IMG/VR virus record: IMGVR_UViG_3300020205_002835
Location: 1-35,338 of that record
Length of the DNA stretch: 35,338 nt
Reading direction: 5' to 3' (one strand)
Source of the DNA: a virus
This document shows positions 2,116 through 35,338 of this stretch, piece after piece. The number at the start of each line of letters is the position of its first letter. Position 1 is the stretch's first letter. Both the position numbers and the translations under genes were made by a program. The notes beneath the pieces were generated by a model. It was not told the origin of the DNA, made no database searches, and saw only the letters and a list, made by a program, of their open reading frames with translations.

Positions 2116-4092
2116 ATGGCGAACGAGAACTTCTTGGATATTACGGAACTTGATTTCGATAAAATCAAACAAAACTTCAAAAAGTATCTGCAATCCAAGC
2201 AGACATTTAATGGTTATGATTTTGAAGGCTCCTCCATGAATATTCTTATGGATATTCTTGCATATAATACTCACTATGCTGCTTTCTATGCCAGCATGGT
2301 GGGAAATGAAATGTTTCTTGATAGTGCAACCAAGCGGGATTCAATCGTATCCCATGCCAAACTGCTGAACTATATTCCACGATCCACAACATCAGCACGG
2401 GCAGTGGTCAATCTGCGCCGTTCCACTTCTGCCACAATCAATCGTGGTGACTATGCATTGGGTTCGTATGTTAATGATAATAATCAAACAATAACCACTG
2501 CCTTTACCTTTCTTGAAGACTATGAGTTTACACAGGTTGGTACGAATGATTGGCGGGTTGATGGAGCACATCTACATGAAGGTGCTCTACAGACCCTGAC
2601 CTATGTCTATGACAGCCGTATTCGGGAAAAGAAGTTCCTGATACCAACAAATGCCGATGTCGCCTCTATTCGTGTAAAGGTTCGTCAAAGTGCCTCTGCT
2701 GCGGACGATGACACCGAAACATGGTATCGTGCCACAGATTTTGCCCAAATAGGAGCCGAAGAGAAAATATTCTTTTTACAGGCAGCATATGATGGGCAGT
2801 ACGAGATATACTTTGGCGACGGCATATTAGGCAAGAGCCTTAATAATGGAAATATCGTCTATGTGGAATATCTACAGTCAATCGGAGATGCAGGAAACTA
2901 TTTCTCTTCCTTTGCATACTCCGGATCAACCACCACAACTGTTTCTGCCGCCATAGGAGGCTCACAGCCCGAGGATGTTACAGATATCCGCAAGAATGCC
3001 CCAAAGGCATTTATGGCTCAGAATAGAAGCGTTACTGCAAAGGATTATGAGAGTGCCATATTAGAAATATATCCACAGGCAGAGAGTGTAAAGGTATGGG
3101 GTGGCGAGGACAATCAACCCCCTCAATTTGGTAAAGTATTTCTCTCTATAAAACCTAATGGTGGACTTGTTATACCTGATTTAGACAAGAAGTTAATAAT
3201 AGAAAGTCTGAAACAAAAGGCTGTTGTCGGCATCATACCAGAAGTAATTGATCCCGAGTATATTCAAGCAATACTCATAGTTACAACAAACTATAATCCT
3301 ACAAAAACCTCGCTTTCCCGAAACGAGATTGCTGCTCTTCAGAGAGCCGCTATCATGCAATACTTTGATATTACCTTGGAGAAGTTTGATGTTTCTCTCT
3401 ATACCTCCAAGTTGAACAAGTTGTTGGATGAGGTTGATTCTTCTATTCTTGGAACACAAATCAAGACCTTGATTGAACAGCGCATACGACCAAGCACCCG
3501 CTATGCATCATTGGTTGATCTGAAGTTCTATAATCCTATATTTCATCCATACGATGGACACAAGGGTGGAGTTCGCTCGTCTTCATTTGAATACAAGAAT
3601 ACTGTTGGTGATGTAAAGTCTTGCTATATTGAAGACGATGGGTACGGAAAACTATCCATTGTTAATACCGATAGTGGAAAGACCATTGTTGTGGACAAAG
3701 CAGGAGAAGTTGATTATAATACAGGAAACATGACTATTTTTCAATTCAAGCCTGTGGGATATGGCGGAAACGACCATATCAAGATTCGTATACAGCCGCA
3801 ATCAAATGATATATTTGCAATGAAGAACAAAATCATAACGATAAGTGGCGAGAATATTCAAATTGATGCCATGACCAAGGATGAATCACAACGCCTCATG
3901 CGTGGAGCATCAAAGGATTTCACCGATTCGCTTGGAATAAGAGGCTTGCTTCCAGAAGGCCCCGTGATTGTTGCAAACGGAAATGCCGTACAGAGTCTGT
4001 CTCCTTTTGTTGTTCCTTTTATTCCTGCACAGCCTCCACTACCAAACAGCATTCCTATCACGCTTCCAACCTTGGGTAGAATCAACGGATAA
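2116..4092 (+). CDS. 6: Baseplate wedge subunit gp6
   Basis: This encodes 658 residues, essentially the length of T4 gp6 (660). Gp6 forms the inner ring that holds the baseplate wedges together and rearranges on contraction. The N-terminus (LDITELDFDKIKQNFKKYL, then EGSSMNILMDILAYNTHYAAFYASM) is the typical start of the family. Around residues 300-350 it has NRSVTAKDYESAIL and VWGGEDNQPPQFGKVFLSI, hallmarks of the gp6/gpJ-like baseplate fold. The ATG follows the gp25 stop directly with GAGAGG upstream. The gene ends in tandem stops, TAA then TAG, before the next ATG at 4096. Nothing looks truncated or odd. Confidence 0.95.
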   Translation: MANENFLDITELDFDKIKQNFKKYLQSKQTFNGYDFEGSSMNILMDILAYNTHYAAFYASMVGNEMFLDSATKRDSIVSHAKLLNYIPRSTTSARAVVNLRRSTSATINRGDYALGSYVNDNNQTITTAFTFLEDYEFTQVGTNDWRVDGAHLHEGALQTLTYVYDSRIREKKFLIPTNADVASIRVKVRQSASAADDDTETWYRATDFAQIGAEEKIFFLQAAYDGQYEIYFGDGILGKSLNNGNIVYVEYLQSIGDAGNYFSSFAYSGSTTTTVSAAIGGSQPEDVTDIRKNAPKAFMAQNRSVTAKDYESAILEIYPQAESVKVWGGEDNQPPQFGKVFLSIKPNGGLVIPDLDKKLIIESLKQKAVVGIIPEVIDPEYIQAILIVTTNYNPTKTSLSRNEIAALQRAAIMQYFDITLEKFDVSLYTSKLNKLLDEVDSSILGTQIKTLIEQRIRPSTRYASLVDLKFYNPIFHPYDGHKGGVRSSSFEYKNTVGDVKSCYIEDDGYGKLSIVNTDSGKTIVVDKAGEVDYNTGNMTIFQFKPVGYGGNDHIKIRIQPQSNDIFAMKNKIITISGENIQIDAMTKDESQRLMRGASKDFTDSLGIRGLLPEGPVIVANGNAVQSLSPFVVPFIPAQPPLPNSIPITLPTLGRING

Positions 4093-28310: not shown

Positions 28311-28318
28311 TATACATA
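28311..28318 (+). promoter_or_regulatory. Candidate late promoter for the neck/packaging genes
   Basis: TATACATA matches seven of eight bases of the T4 late element TATAAATA. It lies in the 56-base gap between the adhesin block and gp13, about 30 bases before the gp13 ATG and ahead of a strong AGGGGGG ribosome-binding site (28338-28344). Position at a functional boundary makes it the most plausible promoter for genes 13-17. It is inferred, not proven. Confidence 0.4.
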
Positions 28319-29991: not shown

Positions 29992-30797
29992 TGTTTGGCT
30001 ATTTCTACCACGGAACCATAAGAAAATACACAGTTGCTTTTGGTACTCTGTTCAACAACATCTATATTAATAGAAAAAACGAAGATGGAGAAGAAAGCCG
30101 ATATCGTGTTCCGCTTGCCTATTCGGAAAAAGACAAGTACATCAGAAGAATACAGGAGTTTCCAACGCTTCAGCCAGATGAAAACAATTCTGATGTTGCT
30201 TTCTCTTATCTGCCAAGAATGTCGTTTGAGTTGGATACATTGACATACGATTCAACAAGAAAGCGCAACACGCTTTCAAAGTTATATGACTATAACTCTA
30301 CAAATCAATCGTATTCGTACACATATGCAGAAGTTCCATATAACTTGGAGTTTAGTCTGCATATTATGACCCGCAAGATTGAAGACGGCTTGCAGATTGT
30401 TGAGCAGATAATGCCTTATTTTGCTCCAGAGTTTGTTGTTACTTTGGATTTAGGTAATTTTGCAAGGCAGATAGACATCCCTATTGTTGTTACTGGATTC
30501 AATCAAACCGTTGAGTATGAAAGTGCATCGGATGACGGAACCGAACACCGCATCATTGTTTGGGATATCTCTTTCAAGATGCGTGGTTACCTGTACGGCC
30601 CTCAGAAGAATGCATATATTATAAAGAAAGCCATTAGCGAGTTTTTTGATTACGATAAATACCTTACTGGCACGGGTAACAGATCAGAAACAGTGGTTGT
30701 TGGAGCATCTGCTGGAGCATCTGCTGGAGCAACAGGATACGGATACACAGTGAAGATTTTTGGATCAACTGCCTCGGATGGCAGCATCTTTGGATAG
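29991..30797 (+). CDS. 15: Tail terminator / sheath stabiliser gp15
   Basis: This encodes 268 residues, close to T4 gp15 (272). It starts MFGYFYHGTIRKYTVAFGTL (T4 starts MFGYFYNSSFRRYATLMGDL) and continues with a YRVPLAYSEKDK strand, SYLPRMSFELDTLTYD, and EFSLHIMTRKIEDGLQIVEQ followed by IMPYFAPEF, all in T4 order. Gp15 caps the finished sheath and tube and links the tail to the neck. The C-terminal tail contains the low-complexity GASAGASAGATGYGYT, encoded by a 12-base tandem repeat (30701-30730) near the end of the protein, where added length is probably tolerated. Confidence 0.95.
   Translation: MFGYFYHGTIRKYTVAFGTLFNNIYINRKNEDGEESRYRVPLAYSEKDKYIRRIQEFPTLQPDENNSDVAFSYLPRMSFELDTLTYDSTRKRNTLSKLYDYNSTNQSYSYTYAEVPYNLEFSLHIMTRKIEDGLQIVEQIMPYFAPEFVVTLDLGNFARQIDIPIVVTGFNQTVEYESASDDGTEHRIIVWDISFKMRGYLYGPQKNAYIIKKAISEFFDYDKYLTGTGNRSETVVVGASAGASAGATGYGYTVKIFGSTASDGSIFG
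30701..30730 (+). repeat. 12-base tandem repeat inside gene 15
   Basis: The unit TGGAGCATCTGC occurs twice exactly (30701-30712 and 30713-30724), followed by a partial third copy (TGGAGC). It encodes a G-A-S-A repeat in the gp15 C-terminal tail. Each unit is four codons, so slippage here changes length without shifting frame. Confidence 0.9.
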
Positions 30798-30811
30798 TTG
30801 GAGAGTATATT

Positions 30812-31327
30812 ATGACTGAAGACCTACCGCAAGAGGAAAAGATTTCAAACAAGTTGGATATCACATTCACACCCGAGACTTCTATTAAGAGGGTGTCTCC
30901 TGATGTAGCCGCTATTGAAGGCGGAAAGCCTATTGACGATATTGACTTGAAAAAAGACTACATGACGGTTCGAAAGAACCTTCGTGAAATCATTATGACA
31001 GGCGCAGATGCCATAGATTCTGTTCTTACTGTGGCAAAGGAAAGTGATTCGCCCCGAGCCTATGAGGTTGTTGCACAACTCATAAAGGCTGTTGCCGATG
31101 TAAACAAAGATCTTTTGGAAATTCACAAAAAGGTAAAGGAAATCCAAGACGGAGAAGGCTCAACACAAAAAGCCACAAGCATCACAAATAACTCTATATT
31201 TGTTGGCAGTACCCGTGATCTACAGGCAATTGTTCGTGAACGATACAAAGAACTAATGGATGCCAAGATTGTTGATGTAGAAGTAATACAGAATGTAGAG
31301 GCTACCAATGACGGACAAACAGGATAA
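30812..31327 (+). CDS. 16: Small terminase subunit gp16
   Basis: This encodes 171 residues (T4 gp16 is 164). The conserved central helical hairpin runs from about residue 45 to 110: KKDYMTVRKNLREIIMTGAD, then a helix, SDSPRAYEVVAQLIKAVADV, and NKDLLEIHKKVKEI. It matches the T4 pattern of 'VR-x-N-L', 'P-R-A-Y-E-V' and 'L-L-x-x-H/Q-K-K'. In T4-like phages gp16 forms rings that regulate and load the large terminase on DNA. GGAG precedes the ATG. The gene overlaps the start of terL by 20 bases, a common arrangement for 16/17. Confidence 0.93.
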   Translation: MTEDLPQEEKISNKLDITFTPETSIKRVSPDVAAIEGGKPIDDIDLKKDYMTVRKNLREIIMTGADAIDSVLTVAKESDSPRAYEVVAQLIKAVADVNKDLLEIHKKVKEIQDGEGSTQKATSITNNSIFVGSTRDLQAIVRERYKELMDAKIVDVEVIQNVEATNDGQTG

Positions 31328-32192
31328 AGGCGCATACTTAGGCAATCCTAATCTAAAGGGGGCAAATGTTCCTGTTGAATTCAACGAGGAGCAAGTTGCC
31401 GAATATCTTCGCTGTTCCCAAGATCCTGTCTATTTCATCAAGAACTATGTTAAAATCGTCAACTTGAATGATGGTCTTGTGCCTTTTGAACTTTATGATT
31501 TTCAGGAGAAGTTTGTTAATGTAATTCATGCCAACCGTTTTACAATATCAAAGTTTCCCCGTCAGAGTGGAAAATCCACCACAGTTATTGCCTATATTCT
31601 TCATACGGTACTTTTCACCCCTAATCAGAATGTTGCGGTTCTTGCAAATAAGTTGGCTACTGCCCGAGAACTTCTACAACGCCTAAAGTTGGCTTACGAA
31701 TATCTTCCAAAGTGGATTCAGCAGGGTGTTCTGAGTTGGAACAAAGGTTCTATTGAGTTAGAGAACGGCTCAAAAATTCTTGCTGCTGCCACATCATCGT
31801 CTGCTGTGCGTGGTAACTCGTTTAACCTTATCCTGCTTGACGAGTTTGCCTATGTTCCCTTCAACATAGCCGACGAGTTCTTTTCCTCTGTATACCCTAC
31901 GATTTCATCAGGTAAAAACACTAAAGTCGTTATTGTGTCCACCCCCAAGGGCATGAATATGTACTACAAGTTATGGACTGATTCTGTAAACAAACGAAAT
32001 GATTATGTGCCTGTAGAGGTATTTTGGGACGAGGTTCCTGGGCGTGACGAAGCATGGAAGCAACAAACCATCAAGAACACCTCGGAAGAGCAGTTCCGCA
32101 CAGAATTCGAGTCGGTTGCATACCACACTCGTATCCGAATAGACGGAAAAGATACGACTATAGGAGAAATATACAGCAATCTCAAAGAATAG
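31308..32192 (+). CDS. 17: Large terminase gp17, ATPase half fused to N-intein (fractured gene)
   Basis: This encodes 294 residues. Residues 1-268 are the N-terminal ATPase domain of TerL, the motor that packages DNA. Walker A is PRQSGKST (84-91, like T4 SRQLGKTT), Walker B is LILLDE (174-179), and the coupling motif STPKG is at 211-215. The ATPase half ends at SEEQFRTEFE. In T4 that sequence continues directly as C-E-F-L-G, but here residues 269-294 are an N-terminal intein fragment and then TAG. The nuclease half is a separate gene at 32807-33976. Neither half is a working terminase alone. Protein trans-splicing would join residue 268 to Cys121 of the second product, giving a 537-residue TerL (T4 gp17 is 610). 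Confidence 0.93.
   Translation: MTDKQDKGAYLGNPNLKGANVPVEFNEEQVAEYLRCSQDPVYFIKNYVKIVNLNDGLVPFELYDFQEKFVNVIHANRFTISKFPRQSGKSTTVIAYILHTVLFTPNQNVAVLANKLATARELLQRLKLAYEYLPKWIQQGVLSWNKGSIELENGSKILAAATSSSAVRGNSFNLILLDEFAYVPFNIADEFFSSVYPTISSGKNTKVVIVSTPKGMNMYYKLWTDSVNKRNDYVPVEVFWDEVPGRDEAWKQQTIKNTSEEQFRTEFESVAYHTRIRIDGKDTTIGEIYSNLKE
32112..32189 (+). other. N-terminal fragment of an atypically split intein
   Basis: This encodes 26 residues from Ser1 (codon TCG at 32112) to the TAG. SVAYHTRIRI fits intein block A, with Thr at position 6, and TTIGEIYSNL follows, as in phage TerL inteins. The fragment ends after the first strands, well before block B, so the split is far upstream of the usual endonuclease-insertion position. 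The AceL-TerL split intein (25-residue N part) has the same design and the same insertion point in TerL. The nucleophile is Ser1, not the more common Cys1. Confidence 0.85.
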
Positions 32193-32227
32193 TCGAGTGT
32201 GACTTTGGTGGATGTATACATATCTAC
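32187..32227 (+). other. Relic copy of the uninterrupted TerL junction
   Basis: Immediately after the N-intein stop, the frame of the endonuclease gene reads E-C-D-F-G-G-C-I-H-I-Y (32195-32227). The functional C-extein begins C-D-F-V-G-S-V-H-T (from 33167) and is preceded after splicing by E. C, D, F, G and H match at the same spacing, with V/I and S/C similar. All three leading codons differ only at third positions (TGT/TGC, GAC/GAT, TTT/TTC). The bases just before, GAATAGTCGAG, equal the extein GAATTCGAG with two bases (AG) inserted. This is read as a leftover of an intein-less terL allele. Confidence 0.65.
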
Positions 32228-32806
32228 ATGATATACCTCTATTCTCTACAAGTCCAAGACAACATCAAATACATTGGATTGACCAAAAATCCAACAAGAC
32301 GAGAACAAGACCATCGGAGAAGACGAAAAACTACACATATCTTCTCTATCATAGAAACATTCGACGATGTTATGGCGGCATCAGATAGAGAAGCAAAACT
32401 AATAACCAAATACGGCACAGTTGTGGATGGATGGAACATTTCTCCAGGCGGCGATTACGAGGGTGCATCGGGATATTGCAGAAAGGGAATAGGCGGCGTG
32501 AAAAAAGGTTGCACCACATGGAACAAAGGCAAGAAGGGGTGTTTCTCTGAGGAAACTATCCAAAAGTTTTGTGATAAAAGAAAAGGCGTGATCCACAGTT
32601 CAAAATTAGACGAGATCACAGTTAGAGGAATACGACAGAGATTTGCAGAGTACACACCGACTGCCGATGTGGGCAACACCATGTCAAATGGTAAGAAAAT
32701 GACTAAGGAGCGGGAGTTTGCAAATATACTTCACGAAGAATATAACATTACGGACATCAATTTGTACAATATTGTTTGTAGAAAATCATGGAAGAATATA
32801 ACATAA
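32228..32806 (+). CDS. Free-standing GIY-YIG homing endonuclease
   Basis: This encodes 192 residues. The catalytic domain is at the N-terminus: YLY (3-5) and YIG (15-17) form the GIY-YIG pair. R25, H29, E55 and N70 line up with the I-TevI residues R27, H31, E75 and N90. A glycine/lysine-rich NUMOD3-like DNA-binding stretch follows (GGVKKGCTTWNKGKKG then FSEETIQKFCDKRKG, about 88-118). A C-terminal region (NITDINLYNIVCRKSWKNI) resembles the helix-turn-helix of Seg-type enzymes. The frame is open upstream to 32054, but that part overlaps terL out of frame and is not protein-like. ATG 32228 is therefore chosen, although no good Shine-Dalgarno precedes it. It ends directly before the C-intein ATG and probably cleaves terL alleles lacking the intein. 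Confidence 0.9.
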   Translation: MIYLYSLQVQDNIKYIGLTKNPTRREQDHRRRRKTTHIFSIIETFDDVMAASDREAKLITKYGTVVDGWNISPGGDYEGASGYCRKGIGGVKKGCTTWNKGKKGCFSEETIQKFCDKRKGVIHSSKLDEITVRGIRQRFAEYTPTADVGNTMSNGKKMTKEREFANILHEEYNITDINLYNIVCRKSWKNIT

Positions 32807-33166
32807 ATGCCTACAATATTTGAGACAATAGCACCCAATGCGAGAATGAACACAAAGAACTACAAAATCTTGTCTCCAGAAGGCGAGGTGGAGTTTCTCG
32901 GTGTGAATAGAATATCCCGCAATCAATATCTGTCTCTCAAGTTTTCCGATGGCACTACTCTCAAATGCTCCGAAGAACACCCGCTGATGACTATTGATGG
33001 CATCGTAAGGGCAAAGAATCTAACAAAACACGAAGAAGTCCAATCAAAAAGTGGTGGATGTTTTCTCACATCAAAACGATTGGTGAAACGGAAGATATAT
33101 CTCTATGACATAGTAGACTCGGGAGAAAAACACCTCTACTACTCAAATGGATTGGTGTCACACAAC
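32807..33166 (+). other. C-terminal fragment of the split TerL intein
   Basis: This covers residues 1-120 of the second terL product (107 if translation starts at residue 14). It contains intein block B (LKCSEEHPLMT, with the block-B His at 58), block F (IYLYDIVDSG, about 97-106) and block G (YYSNGLVSHN, 111-120), followed by Cys+1. Penultimate His119 and terminal Asn120 are the residues needed for Asn cyclisation. There is no internal endonuclease domain, so the intein is a mini-intein; the endonuclease is the separate gene upstream. Confidence 0.9.
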
Positions 33167-33976
33167 TGCGATTTCGTCGGCTCGGTGCATACCCTGATCT
33201 CCCCCCGTAAACTCAAGACTCTTACCTTTGTTAATCCAATTTATAAGAATGATGATGGATTCAAAGTCTACGAAAAACCTAAGAAAGATCATAATTATAT
33301 TATGATGGTGGACACTTCCCGTGGAACAGGCAATGATTACCATGCTTTCACGGTGATTGATATGACTACTGCCCCATACAAGGTGGTGGCAACTTTTAGA
33401 AATAATATTCTACCACCAGCCATGTTTCCCACAGCCATTATTGCGGCGGGTCGGCAGTTTAATGATGCTATGGTTTTGGTGGAACTAAATGATATTGGCG
33501 GTCAGGTGGCAGATATTATTCATGATGAGTTTGAATATGAAGGCTTACTAAATACTTCGGTCAAGGGACGCAAGGGACAGGTGTTGGACGGTGGTTTTAA
33601 TGCTCAAAACCAGCAGCGGGGTGTAAAAACCACCGAAGTAGTCAAGCGGGTGGGTTGCACCACTCTTAAGGGACTCATAGAACAAGAAAAATTGATAATT
33701 GAAGATTATGATTTAGTCAGAGAACTATTTTCATTCGTATCAAAAAAGAATTCATATGAAGCAGAAACAGGTCACCACGATGATTTGGTTATGACTCTGG
33801 TACTTTTTGCTTGGTTAACCACCCAATTGTACTTCAAGGACATTATTGGATCAAATCCATCTTTCGAGATGTATGCAAACCAAATGAAAACTTTGGAAGA
33901 AGAGATGTTTTTTGGCTTTATTGATGATGGAGTAACCGATCCTTTTGACGAAAATAGTGAATGGAAAATCACATAA
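32807..33976 (+). CDS. 17: C-intein fused to nuclease half of large terminase gp17 (fractured gene)
   Basis: This encodes 389 residues. Residues 1-120 are the C-terminal intein fragment; residues 121-389 are the TerL C-terminal nuclease domain. The extein begins CDFVGSVHTLIS, as T4 gp17 continues after EFE. The RNase H-like nuclease centre is visible: Asp169 in IMMVDTSRG, Glu226 in MVLVELND, and Asp325/326 in GHHDDLVM. After trans-splicing to the 268-residue ATPase half it gives a full headful-packaging terminase. Two starts are possible: ATG 32807 follows the endonuclease stop directly, with GGAAG about 12 bases upstream; ATG 32846 (residue 14, MNTKNYKILSP) would give a C-intein closer in length to AceL-TerL. 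Confidence 0.92.
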   Translation: MPTIFETIAPNARMNTKNYKILSPEGEVEFLGVNRISRNQYLSLKFSDGTTLKCSEEHPLMTIDGIVRAKNLTKHEEVQSKSGGCFLTSKRLVKRKIYLYDIVDSGEKHLYYSNGLVSHNCDFVGSVHTLISPRKLKTLTFVNPIYKNDDGFKVYEKPKKDHNYIMMVDTSRGTGNDYHAFTVIDMTTAPYKVVATFRNNILPPAMFPTAIIAAGRQFNDAMVLVELNDIGGQVADIIHDEFEYEGLLNTSVKGRKGQVLDGGFNAQNQQRGVKTTEVVKRVGCTTLKGLIEQEKLIIEDYDLVRELFSFVSKKNSYEAETGHHDDLVMTLVLFAWLTTQLYFKDIIGSNPSFEMYANQMKTLEEEMFFGFIDDGVTDPFDENSEWKIT

Positions 33977-33977
33977 T

Positions 33978-33994
33978 CAGAACTTTTCTGTTTT
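33978..33994 (+). terminator. Weak hairpin with T run after terL
   Basis: CAGAA, CTT, TTCTG forms a 5-bp stem with a 3-base loop directly followed by TTTT. It lies two bases past the terL stop and just ahead of a candidate promoter for gp18. The stem is short and AT-rich, so termination would be partial at best. Confidence 0.25.
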
Positions 33995-34001
33995 ATATAT
34001 A
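33994..34001 (+). promoter_or_regulatory. Candidate late promoter for tail sheath gene 18
   Basis: TATATATA matches seven of eight bases of the T4 late element TATAAATA. It lies in the 69-base gap between terL and gp18, about 45 bases before the gp18 ATG, which has a strong AAGGAGAG ribosome-binding site (34033-34040). Sheath is needed in many copies per virion, so a dedicated late promoter is reasonable. Alternating TA is also a generic low-complexity motif, which limits confidence. Confidence 0.35.
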
Positions 34002-34045
34002 CCATCAGAACTGAATCTTAGATTTCGCCAAAAAGGAGAGAACAC

Positions 34046-35338
34046 ATGGCATTCCAAATCAGCCCAGGTATTAATATTACGGAAATTGACCGTACAGGTG
34101 TTGTTAATCAGGTTATATCCAACACATCTGCTGCTTATGCAGGAAACTTTAAATGGGGGCCAGTCCTCCAAATCCAAACGATTAGCAGTGAAAATGAATT
34201 TGCTGCAAAGTACGGAACTCCGGATGACACAAACTACACAGACTTCTTTAGTGTAGCCAACTTTATTGGTTACGGTGCTCGTCTACAGGTTATTCGCACA
34301 GCCGATGCTGCAACCTCTAAGGCGGCAACCCGCCAAGGCGGTCTTATTGCTTCCACATTTTGGAACAGTGATCTTGCAGACAAGTTCACCAATTACGGCA
34401 CATCAGCAGGTGCTGGTGCAACAGGTGTTGCAATTGCCCGTTATCCAGGAGTATTAGGCAACTCGCTCAAGATTTCATACTCGGACAATGTTGCCCGTGG
34501 AGTTACTTTTAGTGCGCTTGGCGCCGGGTCAGGTGCAAGTGGAATCACATTCACAGTTGGTACAGGATTAACAAACGCTGGATTTAACATTCTCACCTTT
34601 GGATTCACTGGATCCGATGGTTTATCAAAGATTGCTGTTGGAGACTTCCTTAAGTTTGCTGATACTGCAAAGTCTTACGAAGTTCTTGAAAAGAGATCCG
34701 TTACTGCGCCATTCACGGTTAGTCTTCGTGTTATTGGTTCAACCGGAGATGCACAAAGTGCACTAGTAGGTGCAAGCGCAGCCACAGCAGTATGGGCATA
34801 TGCAAGGTTTCTTAACCAAACGCTTTCAACAGCAACAACAACCAAACTCAAGGGTTACTCTGATGATGAAGTTGCGGTTGCAGTTGTTGATGAAGACGGC
34901 TTCGTCTCTGGAACAAAGGGTGCAATTCTTGAAACATTTGTTGGTTCCAAGGCTCAGAACGCCACAAATCTTGATGGTACAAACTCGTACTATACCCGAC
35001 AGTTAAACAAGTCCCAATATGTTTTTTGGGTTTCCCATCCATCTGGAAACAATACGGCGACCTCCGGATTAGAATTGGAACCACAGACAGCAACAACAGG
35101 CTTGGCATGGGGTTCAAATCTTGGAGTCGTCGGAGGAACCGCCGCATTCCAAAAACTTACAGCAAATGTCTATGGATCTTTTGGAGGTGGAACCGATCCA
35201 GTTCCAACACTCACAGATACCTTTGCAGGATATGATCTTTTCAAGGATGGCGAAAACTCTGAAGCAAACCTCTTGCTCCAGGGCGGTCACAATACTGAAG
35301 TTGCCAAGTACCTTATTGAATTGGCAAACACACGCAAG
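34046..35338 (+). CDS. 18: Tail sheath protein gp18 (partial, runs off the right edge)
   Basis: The first 431 codons are present and open to the window end (T4 gp18 has 659 residues). The N-terminus MAFQISPGINITEIDRTGVV is the standard opening of contractile sheath subunits ('S-P-G-V/I-x-x-x-E-x-D'). It is followed by SAAYAGNFKWGPV and the FSVANFIGYGARLQVIRTAD segment of the conserved domain. The middle is glycine- and alanine-rich beta structure, probably the variable outer domain. The closing part (KLKGYSDDEVAVAVVDEDG and FVSGTKGAILETF) leads back toward the core fold. Gp18 polymerises around the tail tube and contracts on infection. The strong AAGGAGAG and the position after terL match T4 order. 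Confidence 0.95.
   Translation, partial: MAFQISPGINITEIDRTGVVNQVISNTSAAYAGNFKWGPVLQIQTISSENEFAAKYGTPDDTNYTDFFSVANFIGYGARLQVIRTADAATSKAATRQGGLIASTFWNSDLADKFTNYGTSAGAGATGVAIARYPGVLGNSLKISYSDNVARGVTFSALGAGSGASGITFTVGTGLTNAGFNILTFGFTGSDGLSKIAVGDFLKFADTAKSYEVLEKRSVTAPFTVSLRVIGSTGDAQSALVGASAATAVWAYARFLNQTLSTATTTKLKGYSDDEVAVAVVDEDGFVSGTKGAILETFVGSKAQNATNLDGTNSYYTRQLNKSQYVFWVSHPSGNNTATSGLELEPQTATTGLAWGSNLGVVGGTAAFQKLTANVYGSFGGGTDPVPTLTDTFAGYDLFKDGENSEANLLLQGGHNTEVAKYLIELANTRK

What the first reader, a model, noticed from the sequence alone, without database searches (positions are those of the whole stretch)
32228..32806. Free-standing GIY-YIG endonuclease inserted in the split point of an intein
The gene has a full GIY-YIG catalytic set (YLY, YIG, R25, H29, E55, N70), a NUMOD3-like linker and a helix-turn-helix-like tail, the architecture of phage Seg/intron endonucleases. 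It lies exactly between N- and C-intein halves, which contain no endonuclease domain. This suggests collaborative homing: the free enzyme cuts intein-less terL while the split intein shields the host gene. Many fractured-gene loci reported from metagenomes carry other endonuclease types, so a GIY-YIG enzyme here is informative.
Basis: partly seen in the sequence, partly recalled or inferred. Interest (0 to 1): 0.72.

Follow-up and report, generated by a model that had tools for sequence, protein, structure and literature searches.

The report
Split-intein terminase carrying its homing nuclease
A phage DNA-packaging gene is cut in two by a self-splicing protein element, and the DNA-cutting gene in the gap is preceded by a near-copy of the site it probably attacks, which may let it switch itself off.

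Summary
An intact GIY-YIG gene (32228-32806) lies between the N-half (stop 32190-32192) and C-half (ATG 32807) of a Ser1/Cys+1 split intein in a T4-type terL. The kind is known: 'fractured' split-intein genes, GOS-TerL/AceL-TerL inteins, and a GIY-YIG/C-intein annotation in phage PX29.

Homing is well supported. A sister contig (L171; 97.7%/94.9% identical flanks) lacks exactly the 1,055-base element. Differences from it cluster at the junction: 7 of 33 within 30 nt, all synonymous (p 7e-5).

New is the gap before the nuclease. It holds an untranslated near-copy of the intein-less terL junction (32195-32212) beside a TATACATA late-promoter-like box. Such a copy is significant in 29 of 34 non-redundant loci with this nuclease tail (GIY-YIG or HNH catalytic domains), 0 of 26 with other nucleases and 1 of 19 with none. 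It stays conserved where synonymous sites are saturated, varies at wobble positions, and in 26 of 33 loci supplies the N-half's stop codon.

Best reading: a composite homing element whose nuclease also binds this copy as an autorepressor operator, as I-TevI does in T4. Binding, cleavage and splicing are untested. Verdict: new variant of a known kind, interest about 0.6.

The parts
31308..32111 (+). terL N-extein (ATPase half), ends ...RTEFE
   Evidence: ORF; Terminase_6N E 2.7e-20; end fixed by alignment with the uninterrupted L171
32112..32192 (+). N-terminal half of the split intein, 26 aa, starts with Ser1; stop TAG 32190-32192
   Evidence: relatives with Cys1 or Ser1 in the same place
32195..32212 (+). 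untranslated near-copy of the intein-less terL junction (reads E-C-D-F-G-G), proposed operator
   Evidence: for this locus alone p about 0.01
32215..32222 (+). TATACATA, late-promoter-like box, 5 nt before the nuclease ATG
   Evidence: same 8-mer only once more on the + strand, at 28311, 29 nt before the gp13 ATG
32228..32806 (+). GIY-YIG homing endonuclease gene: catalytic domain about residues 1-79, NUMOD3-like linker about 83-122, helical tail to 192
32807..33166 (+). C-terminal half of the split intein (120 aa, own ATG, ends VSHN)
   Evidence: (TIGR01443 16.7 bits, cut-off 15.6)
33167..33976 (+). terL C-extein (nuclease half), starts with Cys+1 (CDFVGS)
   Evidence: Terminase_6C E 5.7e-13

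Best explanation
This is a composite homing element at a conserved terL codon: N-intein half, operator-promoter, GIY-YIG homing endonuclease, C-intein half. The two terL halves are made separately and rejoined by protein trans-splicing (inferred from the intact intein motifs and from the experimentally active Ser1/Cys+1 relative GOS-TerL). The endonuclease, aimed by its C-terminal tail, cuts terL alleles that lack the element near the E|C junction, and repair copies the whole element in (inferred; the comparative footprint is shown). The gap before the nuclease gene holds a near-copy of the junction beside a late-promoter-like box (shown). The same tail most likely binds this copy and blocks its own promoter without cutting, because the copy lacks the rest of the target, as I-TevI does at its operator in T4 (inferred). 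Being out of the intein's reading frame, the copy also usually supplies the stop codon that separates the N-half (shown, by position; in the window itself the stop lies just before the copy).
For: Homing: L171 lacks exactly window 32112-33166 with 97.7% and 94.9% identical flanks. 7 of 33 differences in 1,810 nt lie within 30 nt of the site, all at third codon positions (hypergeometric p 7e-5; third positions only p 2.5e-6). One tail family carries GIY-YIG (21) or HNH (13) catalytic domains at the same site; the tail tree needs 5 changes of type, although strongly supported branches force only 1. dN/dS is 0.16-0.23 in three pairs. Operator: junction copy significant in 29 of 33 tail-family loci as first counted (29 of 34 with L059), 0 of 26 with other nucleases, 1 of 19 without nuclease, that one probably a recent loss. 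Mean pairwise identity of the 18-nt copy is 0.72, against 0.37 just upstream and 0.45 at third positions of the nuclease tail; for the 286 most diverged pairs 0.71 against 0.34 and 0.40. It varies by codon position although it is not read as codons in general (identity 0.75, 0.87, 0.55 at positions 1, 2, 3; two of 33 copies hold a stop in that frame). A TATAAATA-like box (7 of 8 or better) lies within 50 nt before the nuclease start in 31 of 33. I-TevI precedent: passages of PMC2988022.
Against: No binding, cleavage, promoter or splicing data exist for this protein. The box alone is not specific: 17 of 23 loci with other nucleases have one, and its p in this window is 0.1. The 33 loci are related by descent, so counts are not independent events. 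Only one close occupied/empty pair was found, and which allele changed near the junction cannot be told, since the outgroup L172 agrees with the window at some sites and with L171 at others. The copy can outlive the nuclease (L028). L060 and L061 carry GAA before Cys in the copy while their terL has Gly there.
Confidence: 0.62

Rival explanations
1. The junction copy is only an insertion footprint: the nuclease gene once sat about 10 codons downstream of the junction in an uninterrupted terL and carried this stretch with it into the intein; it now has no binding role.
For: In L002 and L047 the resemblance to terL runs on nearly to the nuclease ATG (36-37 nt). L028 keeps the copy without a nuclease.
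Against: The copy stays at mean identity 0.71 between loci whose nuclease third positions are at 0.40 and whose adjacent upstream DNA is at 0.34. Window and L002 copies match at 17 of 18 nt while synonymous divergence is about 1.2 per site. L028 is close to L025, so loss there may be recent. No tail-family nuclease was found in an uninterrupted terL.
Confidence: 0.22
2. The copy is kept because it serves as the N-half's stop codon and/or as part of a late promoter, not as a nuclease operator.
For: In 26 of 33 loci the N-half's stop starts at -1 to +13 of the copy. A late-promoter-like box follows at a fixed 22-23 nt in 23 of 33.
Against: Neither role needs 18 nt of terL-like sequence or wobble-type variation. 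Split inteins with other nucleases or none have stops and boxes but no copy: 0 of 26 and 1 of 19. In five HNH loci the box lies upstream of the copy instead.
Confidence: 0.2
3. The nuclease no longer homes; it is a passenger or has another role, and the split intein is inherited vertically.
For: Nuclease-free split and contiguous inteins exist at the same site (L023, L028, L159, L160, L163).
Against: Intact active-site residues, dN/dS 0.155, and a nearly identical relative without the element.
Confidence: 0.12

Closest known systems
Fractured genes with split inteins and free-standing endonucleases (Dassa et al. 2009, doi 10.1093/nar/gkp095; not held, content recalled)
   Same: Conserved phage enzyme gene split by an intein with an endonuclease gene in between.
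   Different: Here a GIY-YIG (or HNH) nuclease on a shared tail, with a junction copy in the gap. I could not read whether that paper already notes such copies; as recalled, its abstract mentions gene control elements brought in with the endonuclease.
GOS-TerL and AceL-TerL atypical split inteins (PMC11766414, passages)
   Same: terL host, short N-half (37 and 25 aa) and long C-half; GOS-TerL has the same Ser1/Cys+1 pair.
   Different: N-half 26 aa and C-half 120 aa here; sequence identity to GOS-TerL not tested.
Aeromonas phage PX29 genes 17A/17B (NC_023688)
   Same: N-intein, then GIY-YIG plus C-intein, in terL of a T4-type phage, as annotated in GenBank.
   Different: Nuclease fused in frame to the C-intein; different nuclease family; no significant junction copy (p 0.40).
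I-TevI of the T4 td intron (PMC2988022, passages)
   Same: GIY-YIG fold (Z 9.3); operator resembling the homing site (15 of 20 nt there) overlapping a late promoter before the nuclease gene.
   Different: I-TevI sits in a group I intron; this one sits in a split intein. Operator function is proven there, inferred here.

Membership tests
GIY-YIG endonuclease superfamily | GIY-YIG fold with conserved Tyr, Tyr-x-Gly, Arg, Glu, Asn | tested here: met
   Pfam above cut-off; residues invariant in 19 of 19; I-TevI fold match Z 9.3
NUMOD3-containing homing endonuclease | NUMOD3 DNA-binding motif | tested here: inconclusive
   No Pfam match in the window protein; 4 of 34 homologues match NUMOD3
Homing endonuclease (function) | Cuts element-less alleles and spreads the element | not testable with these tools
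   Indirect only: empty allele and clustered differences at the junction
Naturally split intein | N- and C-halves in separate ORFs with block A start, block B His, penultimate HN and +1 nucleophile | tested here: met
   Ser1, TIGR01443 above cut-off, invariant H58, H119-N120, C121; splicing itself not testable here
Fractured-gene locus | Conserved enzyme gene broken by a split intein with an endonuclease ORF between | tested here: met
I-TevI-type autorepressing homing endonuclease | Homing-site-like sequence overlapping or adjoining the nuclease promoter | tested here: met
   the homing site is inferred from the insertion site and the promoter is a consensus match only
I-TevI-type autorepressing homing endonuclease | Nuclease binds that sequence and represses | not testable with these tools
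   Needs binding and reporter assays

The most novel reading that the evidence does not exclude
A portable cassette, 'copy of the target site + late promoter + nuclease', invades inteins. Put in out of frame, the target copy splits the intein by supplying a stop codon, and it doubles as an operator read by the same targeting tail. Because one protein surface must read both the target and the operator, the operator keeps target-like codon wobble although it is not translated, and the tail keeps its address while exchanging GIY-YIG and HNH catalytic domains.
Probability: 0.4. Interest if true: 0.75.

Novelty: new variant of a known kind. Interest (0 to 1): 0.6.

Why it matters
If true, homing nucleases in two unrelated settings (group I introns and split inteins) use the same self-control: a spare, uncuttable copy of their own target over their promoter. 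It would give a practical rule, namely to read the gap before the nuclease to learn part of its target, and a concrete route by which a nuclease insertion turns a contiguous intein into a split one. The natural series (empty, contiguous intein, split with nuclease, split after nuclease loss) makes the homing cycle in terL directly testable.

Tried and rejected
Group I intron instead of intein: no Rfam match in 30000-35338. RNA hairpin before the nuclease start as in T4 intron nucleases: 8 loci folded, 1 with z below -2 (L048, -2.65), window z -0.32; rejected as a family feature. Same nuclease family at other genes: of 14 weak hits outside the main set, 13 are other nuclease genes with no junction-type copy beyond their shuffles except L090 (17 against a shuffle maximum of 15, an A+T-rich stretch), and L082 is a truncated terL member of the family. 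Close relatives in the phage collection: no tblastn match for the nuclease. tRNA search empty. PDB sequence search with the family profile: only UvrC and an unrelated hydrolase, both weak. More close occupied/empty pairs: apart from window/L171, the only pairs above 86% in both flanks are copies of one pair (L025-type/L220), with no excess near the junction on both sides.

Counting choices that lean towards my reading: I left L059 out of the tail family after seeing that it has no copy; its tail belongs, so the fair count is 29 of 34 and other nucleases 0 of 26. L030, L034, L036 and L041 were put by hand in 'other nuclease'. Of 127 loci with both junctions, L040, L044 and L162 (misplaced ends) and L035 and L045 (another insertion site) were dropped, leaving 122, of which 79 non-redundant at 97%. 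One search gave no loci because of a wrong BLAST option and was repeated. The 21 'GIY-YIG' members are those without the HNH motif; Pfam itself names GIY-YIG in 17 and T5orf172 in 3 of the 34. Copy-versus-own-junction matching beat reshuffled pairs (13.61 against 12.50 of 18, 0 of 5000), but relatedness is not controlled.

Full report
What is there. The window is a 35,338-base virus record of IMG/VR with T4-type genes. They run terS (30812-31327), terL N-part (31308-32192), GIY-YIG gene (32228-32806), C-intein plus terL C-part (32807-33976), tail sheath (34046 on). The N-part reads through ...RTEFE into 26 intein residues starting SVAYHT and stops at 32190-32192. The C-part starts at ATG 32807, directly after the nuclease stop, and runs to VSHN|CDFVGS. 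The intein nucleophiles are Ser1 and Cys+1, the rare pair of the characterised GOS-TerL intein (PMC11766414, passages). The nuclease has all GIY-YIG residues, an I-TevI-like fold over residues 1-79 (Z 9.3) and dN/dS 0.155 against L002.

It is a family. Searches with the nuclease and C-intein, then with their alignments (the second kept 80 of 368 hits), and GenBank phage records gave 122 loci with both junctions, 79 non-redundant. The nucleases in the gap are of several kinds. One group of 34 shares a NUMOD3-like linker and tail and carries a GIY-YIG (21) or an HNH (13) catalytic domain. The tail tree needs five changes of catalytic type (bootstrap range 4-6), though well-supported branches force only one. 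Another group of about 370-390 residues matches restriction-type models MTES_1575/DUF559 (11 of the 15 proteins scanned).

Evidence of homing. A search with the joined terL exteins found L171, whose terL is uninterrupted. It matches the window at 97.7% over 2,124 nt left and 94.9% over 2,172 nt right, and lacks exactly 32112-33166. Of 33 differences in the nearest 1,810 coding nt, 7 lie within 30 nt of the site, all synonymous (p 7e-5). This is what co-conversion from a diverged donor would leave, but the outgroup L172 does not settle which of the two changed. Among the L161 relatives, L159 has lost the nuclease but keeps its last codons, and L160 and L163 have a contiguous intein at the same place, so nucleases are also lost here.

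The gap. Between the N-half's stop and the nuclease ATG the window reads TC-GAGTGTGACTTTGGTGGA-TG-TATACATA-TCTAC. The first block spells E-C-D-F-G-G, like the intein-less junction EFE|CDFVGS, out of the intein's frame. To test this I searched bases 46-165 of each element for its own 24-nt junction, with 200 dinucleotide shuffles each. Tail-family loci: 29 of 33 with p at most 0.05 (29 of 34 with L059, which I had wrongly set aside), median 16 of 24 against 11.9 by shuffle. Other nucleases: 0 of 26. No nuclease: 1 of 19, L028, a close relative of nuclease-bearing L025. For the window itself p is 0.01. In a second control, 5 of 429 other 39-nt stretches of the same terL match the window's gap as well as the junction does.

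Constraint on the gap. The 18-nt copy averages 72% identity between family members, the 18 nt before it 37%, the 18 nt after it 43% and third positions of the nuclease tail 45%. Window and L002 copies agree at 17 of 18 nt at a synonymous divergence of about 1.2. The copy is not read as codons in general: it lies in the intein's frame in 3 of 33, in the nuclease's frame in 19 of 33, and meets a stop within 20 codons in 18 of 33. Yet it varies mostly at what would be wobble positions. That is what a binding protein tuned to a coding target and tolerant of wobble would impose. In the four loci whose terL has Thr instead of Cys after the junction, the copy reads Thr (3) or Ile (1), never Cys; in L071 and L083 it follows terL's Ala or Gly before the junction, but in L060 and L061 it does not. 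The Thr loci form one clade, so this is few events.

Promoter. A TATAAATA-like box (7 of 8 or better) lies within 50 nt before the nuclease start in 31 of 33 tail-family loci. It starts 22-23 nt after the start of the 24-nt match in 23 of 33 (two of these 23 with only 6 of 8); five HNH loci have it 6-11 nt before that start. Such boxes are also before 17 of 23 other nucleases, so the box is not special to this family; its nearness to the copy is. In the window TATACATA occurs on the + strand only here and 29 nt before gp13.

Interpretation. T4's I-TevI binds a homing-site-like operator over its own late promoter and represses itself, cutting there about 100-fold less well because the cleavage sequence is missing (PMC2988022, passages). 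The gap here has the same anatomy in an unrelated carrier. I therefore think the tail reads the E-C-D/E-F-x-G stretch both in target and operator and that the missing N-extein side prevents cutting. That last point is inference; which side is cut is not known. The copy also gives the N-half its stop in 26 of 33 loci (in the window the stop lies 5 nt before it), so its insertion out of frame may be what splits the intein.

Novelty. The arrangement is known in kind, and PX29's record already names GIY-YIG and C-intein in terL. In the library I could search (search listings, and passages of the papers read) I found no account of a homing-site copy in a split-intein locus, but the key 2009 paper was not held, so this is not proof of novelty.

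Noticed in passing
32215-32228; 12 of 33 family loci: The late-promoter-like box ends only 4-5 nt before the nuclease ATG; if it is used with usual T4 spacing (recalled), the nuclease mRNA would be leaderless.
   Followed up: partly
L159, L160, L163 (between the terL junctions): L159 keeps the last nuclease codons (KETWPNV) after an internal deletion; L160 and L163 have contiguous inteins at the same site, possibly re-fused split inteins.
   Followed up: partly
L023, L028, L038, L097, L099, L136 and others: Split or short terL inteins without a nuclease ORF at the same site.
   Followed up: no
L094-L144: Mostly Ser1-type terL split inteins with a roughly 380-residue nuclease of restriction-like type and no junction copy.
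   Followed up: partly
L034 (Vibrio phage VP-1) 1334-3547: terL appears to hold two inteins: a contiguous one at the P-loop and a second, split one whose N-half is fused to a GIY-YIG domain.
   Followed up: no
L035, L045 (Krischvirus), L042, L044: Inteins at other terL sites (after ...DEC or at the P-loop), one split with a nuclease fused to the N-half.
   Followed up: no
L032, L033 (about 3210-3250): A short QECDC-like stretch lies before a different nuclease gene, not significant in my test (p 0.34 for L032).
   Followed up: partly
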